Below, one piece after another: positions 53,676-64,000 of a stretch of DNA of 64,000 nt. Position 1 is the first letter of the stretch; each line of letters starts with the position of its first letter. The DNA lies in assembly GCA_020072645.1 (NCBI GenBank), contig JAIQGK010000017.1, forward strand, positions 62,001 to 126,000, written 5' to 3'. The notes beneath the pieces were generated by a model that saw only the letters and a program-made list of their open reading frames with translations, was not told where the DNA came from and did not search any database. This DNA is from Terriglobia bacterium (lineage in GTDB: Bacteria; Acidobacteriota; Terriglobia; Terriglobales; Acidobacteriaceae). The translations under genes were made by a program, and so were the position numbers.

Positions 53676-55700
53676 ATGCTGGAGAGAATCGCCAATTCGC
53701 GGACGTTTGTGAGCTTGGTTCTTGCCGGCATGACCGGATTGATGCTCTTCACTATGTACCCATTTCCCCAGGGCAACCTCTACCTGCAATACGTGGCCCT
53801 CAGAGACCCGCTCGTTTACTCGGTTCTCGCCGGGAGCTACACGCTGTTCTTGTTTACTACGCCGTTCTTCATTTACTCCGCCGCTTTCTCAGGGATCTAT
53901 GTGTTGAGCTTTGCTCGGAAGCGGAAACAGAAGCGGCACTCGCTTCCGCCATATCCCGATCCAAAACTCAGGGACGATCTGTTCCTCGTCATCGGAGAGA
54001 TTCATCACCCGACAAGAGTTACTCACGCCAGCGACCCGCAATGGCTGACGATTCCAGAAAAAGGATTGTTTACTGGCATCGGAGTGTTCGGGGCAGTTGG
54101 AACGGGAAAAACAACATGCTGTATGCGTCCATTTGCCGAGCAGCTCATCGCGTTCAACGCTAATGAGCCGGCCAAACGGATTGGCGGGCTCGTGCTGGAG
54201 GTCAAAGGAGATTTCTGCCACCAGATTCGGGAGATTGCCCGACAGCATGACCGCGAGGACGACTACGTGGAAATCGCCTTGAATTCTGACTACCGCTACA
54301 ACCCTCTGCATAACGACCTGGATTCATCAGCTTTGGCCTATAGCGTCGCTTCGCTGCTAAACAATTTGTACGGACATGGCAAAGAGCCATTCTGGCAACA
54401 GGCCTATACCAATATGCTTCAGCACATCATTCTGCTGCATAAGGTGCTCTACGATTACGTGACGTTCTTTGATGTTTACGAGTGCGCGATCTCACCCCCG
54501 AAGCTTGAAAAACGAATTGAGGAGGGCAAAGCCAGATTCGAGACTCGCGAGTACGTCTGCGTAACCCCCGAGGTATATGGAAACGAAAAGTTCGCCAACA
54601 CGTTTGCAGAAATCGCCTTCGCATATGACGACCCCAAAGGGGTGTACAAGGCTCCGGCATCGGCCAGATTGGAAGAACTCCTCAGCAAGCAAGGAACTGC
54701 TCTCGAATACCAGAGATTCACCATCGAGGCTTCGTCTGGCCTGGACGACATCAAGCGGCAGCAATTGGAAGCTGTAAAGCGCTGGTATTTCGACGACTGG
54801 ATGGGGTTGGAAAAAAAGCTACGCAGCTCGATTGTCGAAGGCGTTTCTATTTTCCTCTCACTCTTCGACATCAATCCGGCAGTGAAGCGGATTTTCTGCC
54901 CGCCCAAGCAAACCTACGATCCAGCAGTCAATGTGCCCGATGAGAACGGGTCCTTCCCCTATGGGAAGCCCTTTCCGTCATTCAATTGGCTGATCGAGCA
55001 CGGAAAGATATGCGCCCTCAACTTCCCGATTTCCTTGAACGCCAGTCTCGCCAGAATTCTCGGAACGATGCTCAAGTTGGATTTTCAGCGGGCAGTTCTG
55101 GGCCGAATACCGGAGATGGAACGCGATCGGGAAAGGTATTTCCGGCAAGTCTTCTTGATGTGTGATGAATACCAGAGTTTTGCCACAGTCGGCGAGAGTG
55201 ATCCAATCGGCGACGAAAAGTTCTTCAGTTTGTCACGGCAATCGAAATGTATCCCCATTGTCGCAACACAGAGCATCAGTTCGTTGAAGTCAACGCTCTC
55301 CGGCGACAGCTACAGGACGCTTCTCCAAACCTTCCGCACAAAGATATTCCTGGCTCTTGCGGACGATTTCTCAACCAGACTCGCTAGCGAATTGTGTGGC
55401 CGTGAGGACAGGCCGTTCGTGACCTACAACATCTCCGAATCTGGGCAGGATTCAAAACTGAGCCTACTGACGGGAAAGACCGTTTCAGATCGAGGCAGCA
55501 TCAGCGCTTCCAAAAGCTACAGCGTGAGGCTCGATTACAGATTCAGCCAGAAGTTTCTCGCAGAACTCGCCAACGCTCAGGCAGTCGTACTCCCGTATGA
55601 CGGTCTGAATCCAATGGAGGCCACGCTCTGCTATTTGAAGCCGTATTACCTCGACCCGAATGTTTCCTATTTTGACCAGATCGCCCGTGGGCTGTTGTGA
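53676..55700 (+). CDS. VirD4/TraG-family coupling protein
   Basis: A 674-residue protein. Two N-terminal membrane helices (FVSLVLAGMTGLMLFTMYPF; VYSVLAGSYTLFLFTTPFFIYSAAF) anchor an ATPase with Walker A (FGAVGTGKTTC near 144) and Walker B (FLMCDEYQSFATVG near 492). The TraG-like motif QSISSLKSTL and the AQAVVLPYDGL end are typical. It links the DNA-protein substrate to the secretion channel. The stop overlaps the VirB11 gene region; together they complete the element's transfer ATPases. Confidence 0.92.
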   Translation: MLERIANSRTFVSLVLAGMTGLMLFTMYPFPQGNLYLQYVALRDPLVYSVLAGSYTLFLFTTPFFIYSAAFSGIYVLSFARKRKQKRHSLPPYPDPKLRDDLFLVIGEIHHPTRVTHASDPQWLTIPEKGLFTGIGVFGAVGTGKTTCCMRPFAEQLIAFNANEPAKRIGGLVLEVKGDFCHQIREIARQHDREDDYVEIALNSDYRYNPLHNDLDSSALAYSVASLLNNLYGHGKEPFWQQAYTNMLQHIILLHKVLYDYVTFFDVYECAISPPKLEKRIEEGKARFETREYVCVTPEVYGNEKFANTFAEIAFAYDDPKGVYKAPASARLEELLSKQGTALEYQRFTIEASSGLDDIKRQQLEAVKRWYFDDWMGLEKKLRSSIVEGVSIFLSLFDINPAVKRIFCPPKQTYDPAVNVPDENGSFPYGKPFPSFNWLIEHGKICALNFPISLNASLARILGTMLKLDFQRAVLGRIPEMERDRERYFRQVFLMCDEYQSFATVGESDPIGDEKFFSLSRQSKCIPIVATQSISSLKSTLSGDSYRTLLQTFRTKIFLALADDFSTRLASELCGREDRPFVTYNISESGQDSKLSLLTGKTVSDRGSISASKSYSVRLDYRFSQKFLAELANAQAVVLPYDGLNPMEATLCYLKPYYLDPNVSYFDQIARGLL

Positions 55701-55708
55701 GGGAAGCC

Positions 55709-56683
55709 ATGCAGTTTGAAACGATACTTCCATTTCTGAGGCCGATAGAACACCTCATTCTGGACCCGGACATCTCCGAAATCATGGTGAACGCGGGATC
55801 GCAGATCTTCATTGAAAAGCGTGGGCAGCTCACCCAGGTTCCAGGCATCACCATTTCTGAGCAGGCGCTCAACGCTGCCGTGCGAAACATTGCGCGCCGA
55901 TTAGGGGATGATATCTCCGAAGAGAAGCCGATCTTGGATTCCCGCCTGCCAGACGGGAGCCGCGTGGCCGCAGTGCTTCCACCTTGCAGTATTGACGGAA
56001 TCACCCTCACAATCCGCAAATTCAACACCAGACACTTCACGATGGCGGACCTCATAGAAAACGGGACGCTCGCAGCGGACGCCGCCGAGTTGCTCCGCGA
56101 GAAGGTCACCAATCGACAAAACATCCTCATCAGCGGAGGGACAGGTAGTGGCAAGACTACGCTGCTAAATATCCTTGCCGATTCCATCTCAGACGATGAA
56201 CGGATTCTCCTCATAGAAGACACCGCCGAGTTGAACATCCGCAAAAGCAATCTCGTGCGATTTGAAACTCGCCGCGAGCAGGCAGGATTGTCAGCCGTAA
56301 CCGTCCGCGACTTGCTGAAGGCGGCTCTGCGCCACAGGCCGGACAGAATCATCGTGGGCGAAGTGCGTGGGGGAGAAGCGTTTGATTTACTCCAGGCATT
56401 GAATACGGGACACGCAGGCAGTCTCTGTACGCTTCACGCGAATTCCGCTCGCCAAGCCGTCACCCGCTTTGCAGATTGCGTCCTACAGAGCGGTATCGAG
56501 CTGCCGCACCGGGCGATCATGGCAAACATTGGAAGCGCAGTGGACCTTTTGGTCCACATCGGTAGGACTAAAGGGCAGCGTGCAGTTTCAGAGATCGCCG
56601 TGATGCGAGGGTTTGATAACGAAAGAAACGAATGCAGACTCGACGACCTGAATCCCTGGGATCATCTCCCTCCGCGAAGTTGA
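55709..56683 (+). CDS. VirB11/CpaF-family secretion ATPase
   Basis: A 324-residue protein from ATG 55709; GTG 55697 is possible. N-domain has ILDPDISEIMVNAGSQIFIEKRG. The ATPase shows Walker A SGGTGSGKTTLLN, the Asp-box LIEDTAELNI, Walker B RIIVGEVRGGEAFDLLQAL and the His-box GHAGSLCTLHANSARQ. It is a hexameric traffic ATPase. It is in the opposite arm from VirB4, a split layout. Ends 115 bases before the DUF3800 gene. Confidence 0.94.
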   Translation: MQFETILPFLRPIEHLILDPDISEIMVNAGSQIFIEKRGQLTQVPGITISEQALNAAVRNIARRLGDDISEEKPILDSRLPDGSRVAAVLPPCSIDGITLTIRKFNTRHFTMADLIENGTLAADAAELLREKVTNRQNILISGGTGSGKTTLLNILADSISDDERILLIEDTAELNIRKSNLVRFETRREQAGLSAVTVRDLLKAALRHRPDRIIVGEVRGGEAFDLLQALNTGHAGSLCTLHANSARQAVTRFADCVLQSGIELPHRAIMANIGSAVDLLVHIGRTKGQRAVSEIAVMRGFDNERNECRLDDLNPWDHLPPRS

Positions 56684-56797: not shown

Positions 56798-58069
56798 ATG
56801 AGTAAGAAGTTTCCAGTGAACGCTCCATGTCCCTGTGGGTCAGGGAAGAAATACAAGAAATGCCACGGCAGCGTCAGAACTGCCGAAAAGACTCCCCTCT
56901 TGCGGACCCCAGAGACCTTCGGCCAAGATCTCATCGCCTACACTGATGAAAGCGGGAACTCCGGGAGCCATCTCTTCGACCCCAATCAACCGGAGTTCTG
57001 GACGGGAACACTCATCACACAGCCGAACTTCGAGGCAATTGCCGCACCGGTGGTAGCGGAATGCCTGGCGGTGCTCGGCCAGCATGAACTTCACGGAAAT
57101 GCGTTGGGACTCTCCGGCATCGACAAGATCGGGGATAAGCTCGGCAGATTGTTCGCGAAGACTGGTTCGAGGTTTCTGTTCACAAAAATTGACAAGGTTC
57201 ATTTCGCCGCGACAAAGTTTGCCGACACAGTACTCGACAGCGGGACGAACCAGGCAATGAGCCTATTTCAGTATGGACCCCCGGCAACCCGCCTGCCGTT
57301 GGCGGTTCAGCTAATCCAGCTACTGGAAAAGGATGACCTGGTTCAATGGTGGAAAGCATTCGAGCAAAACGACGGCGCGGCGTTCTCCGAAATGATGAAG
57401 ATCCCGCTCGAACGCTTGGAGTTGCTCCATAAGAAGAAAGTCTATGACGACCGGACCGTACAGCTGTTGCGGGATGCTCTGACGTGGGGGATGGCACACC
57501 CAAAACAACTAATGGAGGGAGGATACCACCCACTGCATGCACCGAACGTAGTAGCAATCACACTGATTGTGGATATGCTGCATACCCTCCACGAGCAGAC
57601 CGGCACACGGGTGGTGAAGTTTATTCACGACGAGCAGAACCAGTTCATGAAGCATTTGAAGTTAATGCACGACCACTCAAAGCAGTTCCAACTTGATACG
57701 TCCAATGTGTGCAATCCGCTGCCAGTAGTTCGCGGAGCCTTGACGTTTGACTGCAATCTGGAATCCGCGCAGTCAAATAACCGCGTCGGCCTACAGCTCA
57801 TTGACGCTGTGCTTTGGCTCGTGCGGCGCTTCCTCAGAACGAAGGGAGAGATTGACGGCGATGCGCGCCGGCTCGCCATCTATGTCATTGCGAACGGCGA
57901 CATCACAACTTTTGACAGGCCCACCATGATCAAGCACACAAAATCCGTCGTCGATGAACTCTACAGTTTGCCTCTGTCAGAACAACAAATGAAGGATGGA
58001 ATGAGGTTGGCAAAGGAATTCGAGGAAAAACGAGTCGCTCGGATGAATTCACGGATTGAGAACGAATAG
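56798..58069 (+). CDS. SEC-C motif / DUF3800 protein
   Basis: A 423-residue protein. Residues about 6-27 are a SEC-C zinc motif (NAPCPCGSGKKYKKCHG). From about 45 a DUF3800 domain begins (LIAYTDESGNSGSH; acidic catalytic-type Asp-Glu-Ser) and ends with QLIDAVLWLVRRFL. DUF3800 has an RNase H-like fold with Asp residues and occurs in mobile and defence neighbourhoods; the SEC-C module can bind nucleic acid or ribosomes. FIHDEQNQF supplies a further acidic site. Its function is not established; it sits between the conjugation genes and the Fic/methyltransferase island. Confidence 0.85.
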   Translation: MSKKFPVNAPCPCGSGKKYKKCHGSVRTAEKTPLLRTPETFGQDLIAYTDESGNSGSHLFDPNQPEFWTGTLITQPNFEAIAAPVVAECLAVLGQHELHGNALGLSGIDKIGDKLGRLFAKTGSRFLFTKIDKVHFAATKFADTVLDSGTNQAMSLFQYGPPATRLPLAVQLIQLLEKDDLVQWWKAFEQNDGAAFSEMMKIPLERLELLHKKKVYDDRTVQLLRDALTWGMAHPKQLMEGGYHPLHAPNVVAITLIVDMLHTLHEQTGTRVVKFIHDEQNQFMKHLKLMHDHSKQFQLDTSNVCNPLPVVRGALTFDCNLESAQSNNRVGLQLIDAVLWLVRRFLRTKGEIDGDARRLAIYVIANGDITTFDRPTMIKHTKSVVDELYSLPLSEQQMKDGMRLAKEFEEKRVARMNSRIENE

Positions 58070-58598: not shown

Positions 58599-60392
58599 AT
58601 GCCGCAACCGAATCAAAAATTGGCTGAATCGCTGGCAGTCCTTCAGGAGCTTCAGAAGGATGGGCGGCGCATATTCCGGTCGGACGACCTAAGCCGCACG
58701 CATCGGGAGCGTTTGCTCGCCAACGGGTTCCTACAGGAAGTGATGAAAGGCTGGCTGATGTCTTCCAGCCCGAGCGCCAGCGCCGGCGACAGCACCCCAT
58801 GGTATGCGTCGTTCTGGGAATTCTGCGGGCGTTATTGCAATGACCGGTTTGGGAACGAGTGGCATCTGTCGCCAGAACAATCGATTCTCCTGCAAGCCGA
58901 AAATACCGTCATCCCGACCCAGGTCGTGGTCTACAGCCCCAAAGGCACAAACCACAAGATGGACCTGTTGTTCGGCACATCGCTCTACGACCTGAAACAG
59001 GCCGAGATGCCACCTCCAGCAGACCTGTCAATGAAGAACGAACTCCGCGTGTTTTCTCCGGCGGCTGCGTTGGTGAGAGCGCCCGAGGCGTTCTTAAGCC
59101 GCAATCCAATTGAGACCCAAGTCCTGCTCGCGAGCCTTGCAGACCCATCGGATGTGCTGCGACAGCTCCTGAGTGGCGCTCGCACGGTAAAAGCGGGACA
59201 GATCGCCGGCGCATTTCGCCGTATTGGTCGCGTACAAATTGCGGACGAAATCATCAGCACGATGAAAGCGGCAGGGCACGATGTGCGTGAGGCTGATCCC
59301 TTCGCGCCTGAGCAGACATTTAGCTCGTTGCCTGCATCTATATCGCCCATCGTCGGACGTATGCAGGCAATGTGGGAATCCATGCGTGGTGTAGTTATTG
59401 AGAATTTCCCCAAAGCGCAGGGGCTTCCCAAGAACCGGGATGAATATCTGCGCTTCGTGGACAATATCTACCAGAGCGATGCCTACCACTCACTGTCCAT
59501 CGAGGGGTACAGGGTAACTCCGGCACTAATCGAGAGAGTGCAGAAGGGTGACTGGGACCCGGATCACCATGATGATGACCGCAAGAATCGCGACGCACTC
59601 GCGGCGCGCGGATACTGGCAGGCTTTCCAAAAAGTAAAGGAAACGGTTGCGAAAATAATTGCGGGTGCCAACCCTGGCACTTTGGCGCGCACCACTCACA
59701 GGGAGTGGTATCGCGAGTTGTTTCAACCCTGCGTAGCTGCGGGCTTGATTCCCGCCGAAGCTCTCGCCGGCTACCGGAATGATGCGGTCTATCTGCGAAC
59801 ATCACGGTATGTGCCGCCACGGTGGGAAGCTGTACGCGACGCCATGCCGTCGCTGTTCGATCTGCTCGAAAAGGAAACCGAGCCGAGCGTTCGTGCCGTC
59901 CTCGGACACTGGCTATTCGGATATATCCATCCGTATCCTGACGGCAACGGACGAATGGCTCGGTTTGTGATGAATGCGATGCTGGCCTCCGGTGGCTATC
60001 CGTGGACTGTGATCCGCGTTCGGGATCGCGACGCCTATCTCAGCGCCCTGGATCGCGCGAGTATCGATATGGACATCAAGTTGTTCGCGGTGTTTGTGGC
60101 GCAGCGCGTGCAGTGGTCCCTTGAACAACACGACCTCACGTTTCCAGAACCGGAAGCGAGATACATTTTCGATCGGGCCATAGTCGTATTTTGGGGCCAG
60201 GATGGGCAGAGGCGAGTCCGTTGCGCCATTAGCAGAGAAGCCCTCGACGACCACTTCAAAGGGGACGGCAAGGACAAGGTTGAAATATTTCAGGCGAACC
60301 GTCCGGCCATTGAGCAGTATGCGCGGGAAAAATATCTTGCTGGAGACACGGAATCTGACGGGTCCGTTCTTGTCCGCACGGGCGATTTGTAG
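58599..60392 (+). CDS. Large Fic protein with AbiEi-like N-terminus and DUF1488 C-terminus
   Basis: A 597-residue protein. About 1-240 resemble AbiEi-type antitoxins (FRSDDLSRTHRERLLANGFLQEV winged helix; then TPWYASFWEFCGRYCNDRFGNEWHLSPEQS). About 245-510 form a Fic domain: the inhibitory S-x-x-x-E-G (SLSIEG near 300) and catalytic HPYPDGNGRMARF near 450 are intact, so it could transfer AMP or a related group and is probably self-inhibited. The last about 80 residues (RRVRCAISREALDDHF) match DUF1488. It is directly downstream of the iterons and likely regulates itself through the winged helix. Confidence 0.85.
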   Translation: MPQPNQKLAESLAVLQELQKDGRRIFRSDDLSRTHRERLLANGFLQEVMKGWLMSSSPSASAGDSTPWYASFWEFCGRYCNDRFGNEWHLSPEQSILLQAENTVIPTQVVVYSPKGTNHKMDLLFGTSLYDLKQAEMPPPADLSMKNELRVFSPAAALVRAPEAFLSRNPIETQVLLASLADPSDVLRQLLSGARTVKAGQIAGAFRRIGRVQIADEIISTMKAAGHDVREADPFAPEQTFSSLPASISPIVGRMQAMWESMRGVVIENFPKAQGLPKNRDEYLRFVDNIYQSDAYHSLSIEGYRVTPALIERVQKGDWDPDHHDDDRKNRDALAARGYWQAFQKVKETVAKIIAGANPGTLARTTHREWYRELFQPCVAAGLIPAEALAGYRNDAVYLRTSRYVPPRWEAVRDAMPSLFDLLEKETEPSVRAVLGHWLFGYIHPYPDGNGRMARFVMNAMLASGGYPWTVIRVRDRDAYLSALDRASIDMDIKLFAVFVAQRVQWSLEQHDLTFPEPEARYIFDRAIVVFWGQDGQRRVRCAISREALDDHFKGDGKDKVEIFQANRPAIEQYAREKYLAGDTESDGSVLVRTGDL

Positions 60393-60531: not shown

Positions 60532-60798
60532 ATGCCACGAGGGAAGGAGAGCGGCGGCAAGTCGCCGAAGCGTCTGATAAAGCGGTATGAGCACACCGAC
60601 AAGAAGCGCGTCAGCAACGCGCCGGTGGGGTTAGTCACGCCGGAGACCGATCCTGTTGCGCCTACCAACGGAACTTACGACTTGCATTGCTCCCGTGCCA
60701 TCCGTAAGACCCCATTGAGTATGCCCGATGCGGTGTGCCAGCAGATTGTCCCCGACCGCCTCAAATTACCGGCAGAAATAGCAAGTCGTCACCCATGA
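60532..60798 (+). CDS. Short ORF with a methyltransferase-like N-terminus (possible remnant)
   Basis: An 88-residue frame with AAGAGG upstream. KRLIKRYEHTDKKRVSNAPVG then LVTPETDP are very like the first about 45 residues of type III/adenine-specific methyltransferases; the sequence then diverges (NGTYDLHCSRAIRKTPLSM). Its stop overlaps the next ATG (ATGA), so it is still translationally coupled to the methyltransferase. It may be a decayed methyltransferase whose start signals have been reused, or a small functional partner. Confidence 0.55.
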   Translation: MPRGKESGGKSPKRLIKRYEHTDKKRVSNAPVGLVTPETDPVAPTNGTYDLHCSRAIRKTPLSMPDAVCQQIVPDRLKLPAEIASRHP

Positions 60799-61451
60799 AT
60801 CTGATCAAATCCAAAAGGCGTGTTGCAGACCACGGAGAAGTGTTTACGCCTCCGTGGCTGGTCGAGAAGATGCTCGACCTGGTGAAGGGCGAGACCGAGC
60901 GCATCGACTCTCGTTTCCTGGAGCCTGCGTGCGGAAGTGGAAACTTCCTCATCCCCGTCTTGCAGCGCAAACTAGCCGCCGTGGAGGCGAAGTACAGCAA
61001 GTCTGACTTCGAGAGGCGGCATTACGCTCTGTTGGCGCTGATGTGCACATACGGGGTTGAGCTGTTGGCGGACAATATCGCGGAGTGCCGCGCCAACATG
61101 CTTGAGGTCTTTGCCGACTATTTGAACCTGGCTGAAACGGATGAGCTCTATCTGGCCGCTTCCTATGTTCTGTCCCAGAATCTGGTGCATGGTGACGCGC
61201 TGACGATGCTCACCGATGAGGAGCGCCCCATTACCTTCTCCGAGTGGGGATACCTCGGCAAGGGTAGGTTCCAACGGCGAGACTTCCGCCTTGAAGCTCT
61301 TGCGCAAATGTCTTCTTTCAGCCGGGAAGGATCGCTTTTCGCCCATCTCGGCAAGCATGAGATCTTTACCCCGATCAAGGAGTATCCGCCAATCAGTGCG
61401 CGGGAGCTTGCGAGCTTGCCTTTTGACGTTGGCTTGGGGGAAGCCATATGA
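60795..61451 (+). CDS. Small N6-adenine methyltransferase-like protein with SAM-binding motif only
   Basis: A 218-residue protein from ATG 60795. It has the gamma-MTase opening VFTPPWLVEKMLDLV (motif X region) and motif I FLEPACGSGNFLIPVLQRKL, then LLADNIAECRANMLEVF. The catalytic NPPY/DPPY motif IV is absent, as the protein ends soon after LPFDVGLGEAI. It probably binds SAM and works with the following methyltransferase, which has the complementary motif pattern. Overlap with both neighbours (ATGA). Confidence 0.8.
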   Translation: MNLIKSKRRVADHGEVFTPPWLVEKMLDLVKGETERIDSRFLEPACGSGNFLIPVLQRKLAAVEAKYSKSDFERRHYALLALMCTYGVELLADNIAECRANMLEVFADYLNLAETDELYLAASYVLSQNLVHGDALTMLTDEERPITFSEWGYLGKGRFQRRDFRLEALAQMSSFSREGSLFAHLGKHEIFTPIKEYPPISARELASLPFDVGLGEAI

Positions 61452-63055
61452 GCGGACAGGTGAGCTTTTCGCTCCGTGGGCGCAACCCGGATATCTTGAC
61501 CTGCATAGCGAACCTCTCCAATGACGAGGTATTTACTCCGCCGGAGTTCGCCAATCGGATGCTTGACACTCTGGCTGAGGCTTGGGCGGCAAACAATGGC
61601 GGAGCGGACCTCTGGGCCGATAGCTCTGTCAGGTTCCTCGACCCCTGCACCAAGTCAGGAGTGTTCTTGCGCGAAATCACCAGCCGCCTCACCAAAGGGT
61701 TGGCAGCGCAGATCCCTGATTTGGAGGAGCGAGTCGACCATATCCTCACCAAGCAGGTTTTTGGCATTGGCACCACTCGGCTAACGAGCTTGCTTGCGCG
61801 CCGTAGCCTGTATTGCTCAAAGCAAGCAAATAGCCCGCATTCGATTGCCAGAGGCTTCACCAGCGAAGGAGGCCACATCTGGTTCGAGCGCACGGAGCAC
61901 AACTGGCGGGACGGCAGATGCAAATCTTGCGGTGCAAGCCAGAAAACGCTCGACCGCGGTGAAGGTCTTGAAACCCACGCCTATGCGTTCATCCATACGG
62001 ATGACGTACAAGCTCAGATCGACGAGATGTTTGGAGGTAATATGCAGTTCGACGTCATCATAGGTAATCCGCCGTACCAGTTGGACGATGGAGGTTACGG
62101 TACGAGCGCTGCGCCAATCTACCAATTATTCGTGGAAAAGGCGCTAGAGCTGGATCCACGGTACGCAGTGTTCGTAACGCCTTCGCGATGGATGGCTGGG
62201 GGCAAGGGCCTCGATAAGTACCGCGAACGAATGCTTTCTGACACGCGCATCTGGACCATTGTGGATTACCCAAAGCTCTACGAGGGTTTCCCGGGAGTCA
62301 AGATTCGGGGCGGCATATCTTATTTCCTGTGGGATCGCGAGCACAAAGGGCCTTGCCTTGTCCAGACGATCTGGGACGGGCAGCCGACCGGCCCCGCCGT
62401 TGCCCGTTATCTGGACGTGTACGACGTTCTCGTCCGGCGCAATGAGGCAGTGCCGATTCTAGAGAAGGTCAAGGCCAAGGGCGAATCAACTCTTGTTGGT
62501 CGAGTATCCAGTCAGAAACCGTTTGGTCTTCGTACGTTCTTCCACGGCAAGCCGACTTCCAGCGGTCTCAAGAAGCCCGTAAAGCTCTTCGGGTCCCAGA
62601 AGGTTAGCTGGGTCGAGCGCTCGAAGATCCCAACAAATGTTGACTGGATCGACAAGTGGAAGGTTCTGATGACTCGTGTCCAAGGCACCAGTGCGGCGAT
62701 CGAGACCAAGTTCCTCAGCAAGCCGATCGTTGCTGAGCCGGGCACGGCTTGCACCGAGAGCTATCTCGTTGCCGGCCTTTTCGACACCGAAGTCGAGGCA
62801 AACTACTACGCGAGCTACCTGCGTACGCGCTTTGCTCGCTTTCTAGTGTCCCTCCGCAAGTCCACCCAGGATGCGCCTAAGCATGTCTACGCCTTCATCC
62901 CGGACCTTCCACTAAACAAAGAATGGACAGACGCCGAACTTTACAAGCGGTACGGGCTGAACAAGGACGAGATTGCCTTCATCGAGTCGCAGGTTGCCGA
63001 GCACGACGCCGACCTGTTCGATGAGGCCGCTGCGGACGAAATCGAAGATGAGTAA
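61448..63055 (+). CDS. Eco57I-class DNA methyltransferase with variant motif I
   Basis: A 535-residue protein. Opens VFTPPEFANRMLDTL, then FLDPCTKSGVFLREI: the SAM motif DPACGSGxFL has Thr and Lys where Gly/Cys-Gly normally lie. A CxxC module (CKSCGAS near 158) is inserted before motif IV, DVIIGNPPYQLDDGG near 203, which is intact. The C-terminal about 300 residues are target-recognition-like (SWVERSKIPTNVDWIDKWKVL; GLFDTEVEANYYASYLRTRFARFLV). It overlaps the small methyltransferase and the helicase genes. Adenine methylation as part of a restriction-like system is likely. Confidence 0.88.
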   Translation: MSGQVSFSLRGRNPDILTCIANLSNDEVFTPPEFANRMLDTLAEAWAANNGGADLWADSSVRFLDPCTKSGVFLREITSRLTKGLAAQIPDLEERVDHILTKQVFGIGTTRLTSLLARRSLYCSKQANSPHSIARGFTSEGGHIWFERTEHNWRDGRCKSCGASQKTLDRGEGLETHAYAFIHTDDVQAQIDEMFGGNMQFDVIIGNPPYQLDDGGYGTSAAPIYQLFVEKALELDPRYAVFVTPSRWMAGGKGLDKYRERMLSDTRIWTIVDYPKLYEGFPGVKIRGGISYFLWDREHKGPCLVQTIWDGQPTGPAVARYLDVYDVLVRRNEAVPILEKVKAKGESTLVGRVSSQKPFGLRTFFHGKPTSSGLKKPVKLFGSQKVSWVERSKIPTNVDWIDKWKVLMTRVQGTSAAIETKFLSKPIVAEPGTACTESYLVAGLFDTEVEANYYASYLRTRFARFLVSLRKSTQDAPKHVYAFIPDLPLNKEWTDAELYKRYGLNKDEIAFIESQVAEHDADLFDEAAADEIEDE

Positions 63056-64000
63056 GCCTATTGCCGAAATCCTCGCGGCCAAGCCGGAGGCCCGGCCGCG
63101 CATCTATGCCTATTCGATTGACGATGCGGCTCACAAGGGTCTTCTCAAAATTGGGCAGACGACGCGCAATGTCAAGCAGCGGGTCTCCGAACAACTCAAG
63201 ACCGCCGCTATCAAGAACTACAAGATCGAACTAGAAGAGTCCGCCGAGCGCGATGACGGAACCATTTTCAGCGACCACGAGGTGCGCACGGCGCTCGTCA
63301 GGAAGAAGTTCGCGAACCCCGACCTGGAATGGATGCGCTGCACCCTCCCGGACGTAAAGACCGTGCTCATCGAACTGCGCACGGGGCAGAACTTCACTGG
63401 CACCCGTCACCAAACGTTTTCCATGCGCCGCGAACAGGCCGAAGCGGTGAAGCTAACGCACGCCTACTTCCTCTCGCGCTGGGCAGAAGACATGCACGCG
63501 GTCCCACGTTTCTTGTGGAACGCAAAGATGCGGTTCGGAAAAACCTTTACCACCTACCAACTCGCTCGGAAGCTTGGTGCCAAGAGGGTGCTCGTGGTGA
63601 CTTTCAAGCCCGCGGTGGAAGATGCGTGGCAGACGGACCTCGAAAATCATGTGGACTTCAATGGCTGGCAGTACCTGTCGAAATCCTCCGGGGGAGACCC
63701 GACGCAAATCGATCACAAGAAACCTGTTGTCTATTTCGGCTCCTTCCAGGACTTGCTAGGCCGCGACTCGGCGGGGAACATCAAGCCTAAGAACGAATGG
63801 CTACACACGGTGAATTGGGACCTCGTAGTATTCGACGAATACCACTTCGGCGCTTGGAGGGAGACGGCGAAAGAACTGTTTGACGGCGAGGAAGAAGCGG
63901 TCGCGCAGAAGGAAGCGAAGATCGAATACGCAGCCGCGCTGGAAAATGTAAACGAAGGCCTCGAAGTCCTCTCGGAAAAGGAGACCGAGTTCCTCCCGAT
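63048..64000 (+). CDS. GIY-YIG(T5orf172)-helicase protein (partial, runs off the right edge)
   Basis: From ATG 63048, overlapping the methyltransferase end by 8 bases, at least 317 codons are open. Residues about 18-45 form a T5orf172/GIY-YIG-like nuclease fold (IYAYSIDDAAHKGLLKIGQTTRNVKQRV). A helicase core follows: Q-like motif FSMRREQAEAV, Walker A NAKMRFGKTFTTY near 160, and DEAH-type VVFDEYHFGAW near 260. It is the presumed restriction/translocation component of the adjacent methyltransferase pair. The C-terminal part is not in the window. Confidence 0.85.
   Translation, partial: MSKPIAEILAAKPEARPRIYAYSIDDAAHKGLLKIGQTTRNVKQRVSEQLKTAAIKNYKIELEESAERDDGTIFSDHEVRTALVRKKFANPDLEWMRCTLPDVKTVLIELRTGQNFTGTRHQTFSMRREQAEAVKLTHAYFLSRWAEDMHAVPRFLWNAKMRFGKTFTTYQLARKLGAKRVLVVTFKPAVEDAWQTDLENHVDFNGWQYLSKSSGGDPTQIDHKKPVVYFGSFQDLLGRDSAGNIKPKNEWLHTVNWDLVVFDEYHFGAWRETAKELFDGEEEAVAQKEAKIEYAAALENVNEGLEVLSEKETEFLP

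What the first reader, a model, noticed from the sequence alone, without database searches (positions are those of the whole stretch)
60532..64000. Coupled operon of a split methyltransferase pair and a GIY-YIG-helicase
Four overlapping genes encode: a short methyltransferase-like N-terminus, a 218-residue protein with SAM motif I but no NPPY, a 535-residue Eco57I-class protein with variant motif I (DPCTKSG) but intact NPPY plus a CxxC insertion, and a helicase with an N-terminal GIY-YIG nuclease. The complementary motif loss suggests that SAM binding and catalysis are divided between two proteins. Together they look like a restriction or phage-defence system that is not one of the textbook types.
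Basis: partly seen in the sequence, partly recalled or inferred. Interest (0 to 1): 0.78.

Follow-up and report, generated by a model that had tools for sequence, protein, structure and literature searches.

The report
DrdVI-type split methylase restriction-modification operon
This is a mobile bacterial DNA-defence operon of an already published kind (DrdVI/MaeIV 'split methylases') in which the DNA-methylating enzyme is most likely made of two separate proteins, one carrying the cofactor-binding half and the other the catalytic and DNA-recognising half, next to a nuclease-motor protein.

Summary
In detail: M1 (60795-61451; GxG motif I, no NPPY), M2 (61448-63055; DPCTKSG, NPPY) and R (63048 to beyond the window; GIY-YIG-like plus helicase) form a coupled operon. 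The first 88-aa ORF is a truncated piece of another methylase.

The system is not new. It is homologous gene by gene (69/57/76% identity) to DrdVI, whose M1-M2 pair is credited with m6A at GCAGCC; a second pair, M1-M2.MaeIV, is called 'split methylase' in print.

The complementary motif loss is conserved: 140 of 140 complete M1 hits keep GxG and the motif II acid; 139 of 139 readable M2 hits of the main family have Lys for the first Gly. M1 is found in 115 of 121 fetched loci.

Rearranged relatives are informative: M2's NPPY/TRD half (M2C) also occurs alone or fused behind an M1-like protein, while its degenerate cofactor-like half (M2N) then sits on R or is missing. So M1 most likely supplies the SAM site and M2C catalysis and recognition. 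M2N's role is open; I suggest a decoy half serving restriction. M1 docking on M2C was neither modelled nor shown, and M2 alone also folds as a whole methylase.

The parts
60532..60798 (+). 88-aa ORF, truncated N-terminus of an unrelated (Planktothrix-type) DNA methylase; probable remnant, not a working part
   Evidence: residues 4-52, 45.6% identity, E=3e-5, to an 874-aa 'DNA methylase, putative', the only hit among 72,556 plasmids; no Pfam, PADLOC or NCBIfam hit
60795..61451 (+). M1 (218 aa): SAM-binding half of a gamma-class N6-adenine methyltransferase (motifs X, I, II, III); no motif IV
   Evidence: AF2 pLDDT 88.7 with strands 41-44, 85-89, 130-134; best match is the cofactor half of CamA; 69% identical to the pDrdVI M1
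60921..60941 (+). M1 motif I EPACGSG
   Evidence: sequence; GxG in all 140 complete M1 hits
61448..63055 (+). M2 (535 aa): degenerate cofactor-like half M2N (residues about 1-195) plus catalytic/TRD half M2C (residues about 199-535)
   Evidence: 57% identical to the pDrdVI M2; a homologue folds as a whole CamA-like enzyme
61640..61660 (+). M2 degenerate motif I DPCTKSG (Lys in place of the first Gly)
   Evidence: Lys in all 139 readable of 153 M2 hits
61919..61930 (+). CxxC of a putative zinc-binding insertion between M2N and M2C
   Evidence: both Cys invariant in 8 aligned M2; zinc binding inferred
62042..63055 (+). M2C: NPPY catalytic half and target-recognition region; the separable unit
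   Evidence: occurs as a free-standing 341-346 aa protein in L155, L158, L160
62066..62077 (+). M2 motif IV NPPY
   Evidence: NPP[YF] in all 147 readable of 153 M2 hits
62474..62653 (+). Probable core of the target-recognition domain (limits by eye)
   Evidence: corresponds to the block with 31 of the 49 differences between the two Rothia systems; among the highest entropies in M2
63048..64000 (+). R: GIY-YIG-like N-terminus plus SF2 helicase/translocase; continues beyond the window (845 aa, L002:7048-9585)
   Evidence: 76% identical to the pDrdVI R

Best explanation
A mobile three-gene restriction-modification system of the published DrdVI/MaeIV 'split methylase' family. M1 is the SAM-binding half of a gamma-class N6-adenine methyltransferase. 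The C-terminal part of M2 (M2C) is the catalytic NPPY half plus the target-recognition domain. The two assemble into one enzyme that methylates a single adenine in an asymmetric site. R, a GIY-YIG-like nuclease fused to a helicase-like motor, cuts unmodified DNA using the recognition domain of M2C. M2N, the N-terminal third of M2, is a degenerate copy of the SAM half with a nearly invariant Lys; it does not bind SAM usefully and is linked to R. Shown: homology to DrdVI, conserved gene set, complementary motifs, natural domain rearrangements, predicted whole-MTase fold of an M2, predicted half-MTase fold of M1. Inferred: physical M1-M2C assembly, loss of SAM binding by M2N, target site, restriction activity and the role of M2N.
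For: DrdVI homology on plasmid pDrdVI with the same order M1-M2-R: 69/57/76% identity. M1-2.DrdVI is credited with m6A at GCAGCC, cloned in E. coli (PMC6430315, whole text). [quoted passage not shown] trehalosi relative contains a GIY-YIG domain (PMC4996451). M1-M2.MaeIV, cloned together, recognises GCACY, a single-strand m6A motif, and is called 'split methylase' (PMC10113651, passages). GCAGCC holds one adenine over both strands, so one methyltransferase is enough; 140 of 140 complete M1 hits have GxG and the motif II acid; 139 of 139 readable M2 have Lys at the first Gly; 0 of 138 readable have the motif II acid; 147 of 147 readable have NPP[YF]. Co-occurrence: M1 in 115 of 121 loci, R in 117 of 121; in genomes found by whole-protein or profile search, all 10 loci that hold an M2 N-terminus (own genome not counted) also hold M1. 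Rearrangements: M2C free with M2N on the C-terminus of R (L155, L160, L166, L174); M1'-M2C in one chain with M2N on R (L164); M1'-M2C in one chain in phage FNU4, and M1' plus M2C apart in phage PTm1, both records whole without an R match and with M2 matched only from position 177 or 191 on, so no M2N. In FNU4 the Pfam Eco57I domain runs across the M1'/M2C junction. M1 alone folds like the cofactor half of CamA.
Against: AF2 folds M2N+M2C of L041 as a complete CamA/M.TaqI-like enzyme, so M2N can occupy the place that M1 would need; M1 was poorly modelled in that chain (pLDDT mostly below 50), so docking is untested. Motif I variants can work: M.TaqI has AxAxG (PMC8187626), and the M2 hits of the window's subfamily keep the acidic-Pro start of motif I. 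L130 has intact M2 and R but no M1 on its contig; L071 has none next to M2 nor a clear one in its draft genome, though its contig starts 680 nt before M2. M2N of L155 lacks the Lys. Ten of 21 M1' loci show no M2C in the stretch fetched, so M1'-like proteins may have other partners. M1' is only a weak match to the M1 profile. In the passages I saw, M1 and M2 of MaeIV were cloned together; I found no test of each alone.
Confidence: 0.73

Rival explanations
1. M2 is a complete, autonomous methyltransferase whose Lys-variant motif I still binds SAM. M1 is an accessory or allosteric pseudo-methyltransferase subunit, like METTL14 beside METTL3 (analogy recalled).
For: M2 has its motifs in gamma order and a homologue folds as a whole CamA-like enzyme; M.TaqI shows that motif I varies; L130 has M2 and R without M1 on its contig.
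Against: Motif II acid absent in all 138 readable M2 hits and Lys in all 139, while 140 of 140 complete M1 hits keep GxG and the acid. M2C occurs without M2N in phages PTm1 and FNU4. M1 is retained in 115 of 121 loci.
Confidence: 0.19
2. M1 and M2 are two separate enzymes methylating the two strands of an asymmetric site, as in many type IIS systems (recalled).
For: The M1/M2 naming; asymmetric sites.
Against: GCACY is reported as a single-strand motif and GCAGCC has one adenine in all. M1 has no motif IV and only the cofactor half of the fold.
Confidence: 0.03
3. The operon is a decaying relic, like the neighbouring 88-aa fragment, and no longer works as R-M.
For: A truncated methylase lies directly upstream; B. 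trehalosi copies of a DrdVI-like system are broken and inactive.
Against: All three window genes are full length against their homologues, with the conserved motifs in place and overlapping frames.
Confidence: 0.05

Closest known systems
DrdVI system (M1.DrdVI, M2.DrdVI, DrdVI), Deinococcus wulumuqiensis NEB 479 plasmid pDrdVI
   Same: Same three genes in the same order, 69/57/76% identity, same motif pattern
   Different: M2 only 32% identical at residues 300-400 and 42% at 400-480, against 75% in M2N, so probably another target sequence
MaeIV (M1-M2.MaeIV), Methanococcus aeolicus
   Same: Named in print as a 'split methylase/RM' family like DrdVI; single-strand m6A motif
   Different: Archaeal; sequence not compared here
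Type ISP enzymes LlaGI / LlaBIII
   Same: The M2 model matches their MTase-TRD part (Z 19.8 and 19.6); ATP-driven motor (recalled)
   Different: Single polypeptide with a complete MTase (recalled); here three proteins, split MTase and a GIY-YIG-like nuclease
CamA and M.TaqI (gamma N6-adenine MTases)
   Same: An M2 folds over nearly the whole of CamA (Z 21.9, 411 residues) and M1 over its cofactor half (Z 10.4, 132 residues)
   Different: Single-chain enzymes with their own SAM site
DnmA-YeeB-YeeC (Bacillus subtilis and others)
   Same: MTase, SF2 helicase and GIY-YIG/T5orf172 protein in one cluster (PMC9973331, passages)
   Different: One MTase gene, GIY-YIG protein separate from the helicase; sequences not compared here

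Membership tests
DrdVI/MaeIV split methylase R-M | Adjacent M1, M2 and R homologous to the pDrdVI genes | tested here: met
   69, 57, 76% identity, same order
DrdVI/MaeIV split methylase R-M | R is a fused translocase and GIY-YIG nuclease | tested here: inconclusive
   Helicase domain met (ResIII); GIY-YIG-type profile reached by 4 of 7 R proteins, not by the window's R itself, though key residues align
DrdVI/MaeIV split methylase R-M | M1 and M2 together give m6A at one strand of an asymmetric site | not testable with these tools
   Needs a methylome; for DrdVI and MaeIV from papers
Type IIG (single-chain R-M-S enzymes) | Nuclease, methyltransferase and recognition in one polypeptide | tested here: not met
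   Three separate genes; the NEB paper nevertheless lists DrdVI under IIG and a PADLOC type IIG model (PDLC03626, 1359 positions) covers both R and M2
Type ISP | Single polypeptide with nuclease, motor, MTase and TRD | tested here: not met
   Separate genes here; R-M2N-M2C fusions in Firmicutes come close but still have a separate M1 or M1'
Type I R-M | HsdS specificity subunit with HsdM and HsdR | tested here: not met
   No S-like domain among the nine proteins of the locus scanned
DnmA-YeeB-YeeC | Homology of the three proteins | not tested
   Met only in the literature

The most novel reading that the evidence does not exclude
M2N is a decoy cofactor half. One catalytic/recognition half (M2C) is shared between two alternative N-halves: M1, which brings SAM and makes the modification enzyme, and M2N, which brings a Lys instead, cannot methylate, is tied to R and makes the restriction complex. 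Swapping M1 for M2N on M2C would switch the same DNA reader between protecting and cutting.
Probability: 0.25. Interest if true: 0.85.

Novelty: new member of a known kind. Interest (0 to 1): 0.48.

Why it matters
It places an apparently odd operon in a published but thinly described R-M family, and shows by comparison of many loci how its methyltransferase is split. A Rossmann enzyme divided just before motif IV, with a retained degenerate duplicate of the cofactor half riding on the restriction motor, raises a directly testable question about how one recognition domain serves both modification and restriction. Two Rothia systems that differ mainly in one block of M2 point to where the specificity lies.

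Tried and rejected
Rejected: two independent strand-specific MTases (one adenine in GCAGCC; M1 lacks motif IV); the 88-aa ORF as a system component; other PADLOC-named systems (the strong matches of M2 and R, and the best of M1, were type II/IIG methylase models; mad2 and PglX hits were weak and are put down to the common MTase fold). Sequence search of PDB: no hit for the M2 or R profile at E<=0.01, one weak one for M1 (HsdM 3ufb, E=4.2e-5).

Loci without M1 among the 121: L135 is a fragment; the contigs of L071, L094 and L103 start 680, 33 and 0 nt before M2 (in L071 those 680 nt hold another gene, and its draft genome shows no clear M1); L040 has lost the M2 start; L130 is a true exception on its contig. 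Loci without R: L056 and L135 (cut or fragment), L112 (about 2 kb available downstream) and L133 (M2 truncated). Pediococcus L162 seemed to lack an M1, but the whole plasmid record has M1-like matches in a 363-aa frame just before the record start (the record repeats this stretch three times). L161 (L. plantarum) is a decayed copy.

Led nowhere: a joint alignment of unpaired M1 and M2 rows (MAFFT put M1 rows onto M2N, or M2 rows onto M1); a fold of the natural M1'-M2C fusion L164, given up because enough rows could not be aligned, so the second fold job went to M1 alone; a viral search with FNU4 (nothing). No model coordinates were found in the Python box, so no distances were measured.

Literature: nothing on M2N, its Lys or the domain rearrangements was seen in the listings of searches or in the passages read; this covers open-licence PMC papers only, not REBASE, and most listed papers were not opened. 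Type definitions, motif names and the METTL analogy are recalled unless a call is given.
Full report
What is there. The window is contig C17:62001-126000 of a 6.4-Mb draft genome. At its right end lie an 88-aa ORF (60532-60798), M1 (60795-61451, 218 aa), M2 (61448-63055, 535 aa) and R (from 63048; 845 aa, ending 1,585 nt beyond the window at L002:9585), overlapping by 4, 4 and 8 nt. M1 matches N6_Mtase, M2 matches Eco57I, R matches ResIII. In the 7-member R alignment 4 members match T5orf172, the GIY-YIG-type domain, although the window's own R does not at E<=1. The 88-aa ORF has no domain hit and resembles only the first part of an 874-aa Planktothrix methylase; I treat it as a remnant.

It is a known system. 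tblastn against plasmids found M2 in 81 and M1 in 72 records. The same operon lies on Rhizobium, Deinococcus, Sphingopyxis, Acuticoccus, Variovorax and Mycobacteroides plasmids; on a Corynebacterium plasmid M1 and M2 are followed by a transposon with resistance genes and the helicase gene lies beyond it. The Deinococcus record is pDrdVI. Its M1, M2 and R are 69, 57 and 76% identical to the window's. The genome paper (PMC6430315, whole text read) lists M1-2.DrdVI with motif GCAGCC, m6A, type IIG, cloned and expressed in E. coli. [quoted passage not shown] trehalosi ORF with M1-like N-terminus and M2-like C-terminus. [quoted passage not shown] PADLOC already holds a type IIG model that covers both R and M2. 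So the split itself is in print; 'not one of the textbook types' holds only in the sense that this family is little described.

Conservation. The search for related loci fetched 80 loci from bacterial genomes (the best 80 of at least 574 relatives) and 41 from viral contigs. Of these 121, 115 carry M1 (89 of the 115 within 100 nt of M2) and 117 carry R. The exceptions are listed under Tried and rejected. L130 is a genuine one: intact M2 and R, and on its whole 30.7-kb contig the M1 profile matches only M2N; upstream is an ORF joining a putative adenine MTase and a C5-MTase (by eye). L071 may be a second. In genome searches with the M2 protein and the M2 profile, 3 of 100 and 10 of 396 genomes had a match, the window's own counted in both; outside the own genome all 10 loci with an M2 N-terminus had M1 as well.

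Complementary motifs. In the 157 loci held at that time, after dropping three duplicates of the window, 141 M1 and 153 M2 domain hits were aligned; other near-duplicates were left in (for example L125-L127, and L031 with L137). One M1 is a fragment; the other 140 all have GxG in motif I and D/E in motif II. For M2, 14 are gapped at motif I, and all other 139 have Lys at the first Gly; 15 are gapped at motif II and none of 138 has D/E there; 6 are gapped at motif IV and all other 147 have NPP[YF]. One of the two search patterns contained the Lys, which biases those sets, but the plasmid hits and the genome searches were made without it. In relatives with other architectures I read 16 M2N stretches: 15 have K[STM]G and one, Arthrobacter L155, has FSTAG. 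In CamA an Asp of motif I, an Asp of motif II and an Asp of motif III bind the cofactor (PMC8187626, passages); M1 keeps motif I and the motif II acid, M2 has lost the first Gly and the motif II acid. The same paper notes AxAxG in M.TaqI, so a variant motif I alone does not prove loss of SAM binding.

Natural dissection. M1' denotes a longer M1-like family (EITCGEAPY-type motif I; only weakly matched by the M1 profile). Architectures seen, gene order varying: M1 | M2N-M2C | R (window, DrdVI); M1 | R-M2N-M2C (Paenisporosarcina L014 and Firmicutes plasmids L148, L149, L150, L152, L153, L156, L159, L163); M1 | R-M2N | M2C (Arthrobacter L155); M1' | R-M2N-M2C (L151, L165, L169, L171, L172, L175, and L168 with M2N read by eye); M1' | M2C | R-M2N (L160, whose R lies in two frames in an unverified record, L166, L174); M1'-M2C in one chain | R-M2N (L164); M1'-M2C in one chain without R (phage FNU4, L157); M1' and M2C apart without R (phage PTm1, L154/L158). 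In the whole records of these two phages the R profile finds nothing at E<=0.01 and the M2 profile matches only from position 177 or 191 on, so M2N is missing (an empty R answer carries no control in those records). In the loci read, M2N was not seen fused to M1 or M1'; whether the frameshifted B. trehalosi ORF is such a fusion I could not see. Free M2C starts within about 15 residues before NPPY, and in FNU4 the Pfam Eco57I domain spans the junction. Against: 10 of the 21 M1' loci (L170, L173, L176-L178, L180-L184) show no M2C in the stretch fetched, some of them cut by contig ends. The simplest reading is that M1/M1' and M2C are the two halves of the methyltransferase and M2N belongs with R.

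Structure. Job 1 folded L041 M1 and M2 read as one chain. M2 came out well and M1 badly, having only six rows. By VIA-align M2 (237-745) matches CamA almost end to end (Z 21.9, rmsd 4.4-4.5, 411-412 residues), M.TaqI (Z 17.4, 337 residues), DrdV (Z 20.1) and the type ISP enzymes. So M2N and M2C can form a complete MTase fold together; this is the strongest point for the rival that M2 is self-sufficient, and it is also what the decoy reading would predict. Job 2 folded the window's M1 with 97 rows: pLDDT 88.7, strands 41-44, 85-89, 130-134 and a hairpin 147-165. It matches CamA 13-207 (Z 10.4, rmsd 3.0, 132 residues), with several rows ending at CamA 153, before the NPPY Tyr168; MmeI, BrxX and EcoKI-M are matched over the corresponding part at Z 7.4-8.4, which is weak; Foldseek alone gave no hit at E<=0.001. 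No docking of M1 on M2C was modelled.

Recognition. Against DrdVI, M2N is 75% and the NPPY region 63% identical, but residues 300-400 and 400-480 only 32 and 42%. The window therefore probably reads a site other than GCAGCC.

Verdict. The new element is the domain-shuffling evidence and the open function of M2N.

Noticed in passing
window 60532-60798: Truncated N-terminus of an unrelated DNA methylase directly upstream of M1, sharing a 4-nt overlap: a hint of earlier turnover of methylase genes at this spot.
   Followed up: partly
window 58599-60392: 597-aa protein with Fic and C-terminal DUF1488 domains just upstream of the operon.
   Followed up: no
window 56798-58069: SEC-C plus DUF3800 protein downstream of what looks like a conjugation ATPase gene (55697-56683, TrbB/VirB11-like by eye): the operon may sit in a mobile element.
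   Followed up: no
L002:10227-12364 (window 66227-68364, beyond the window): HTH regulator, a weak match to IrrE-like peptidase and a 214-aa protein without domain hits in a row downstream of R.
   Followed up: no
L130:5784-10608: Intact M2 and R without M1, behind an ORF that by eye joins an adenine MTase to a C5-MTase; perhaps another partner replaces M1.
   Followed up: partly
L041 and L042: Two Rothia systems nearly identical except for a 55-residue block of M2: looks like a natural recognition-domain swap.
   Followed up: partly
L154:7492-8499: Phage PTm1 protein annotated 'type II restriction endonuclease' carries M1'-type methyltransferase motifs and is probably the SAM half of the phage's methylase, a misannotation.
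   Followed up: partly
L170, L173, L180-L182: M1'-like proteins in viral contigs with 6 kb on each side but no M2C found: possible further partners of the SAM half.
   Followed up: no
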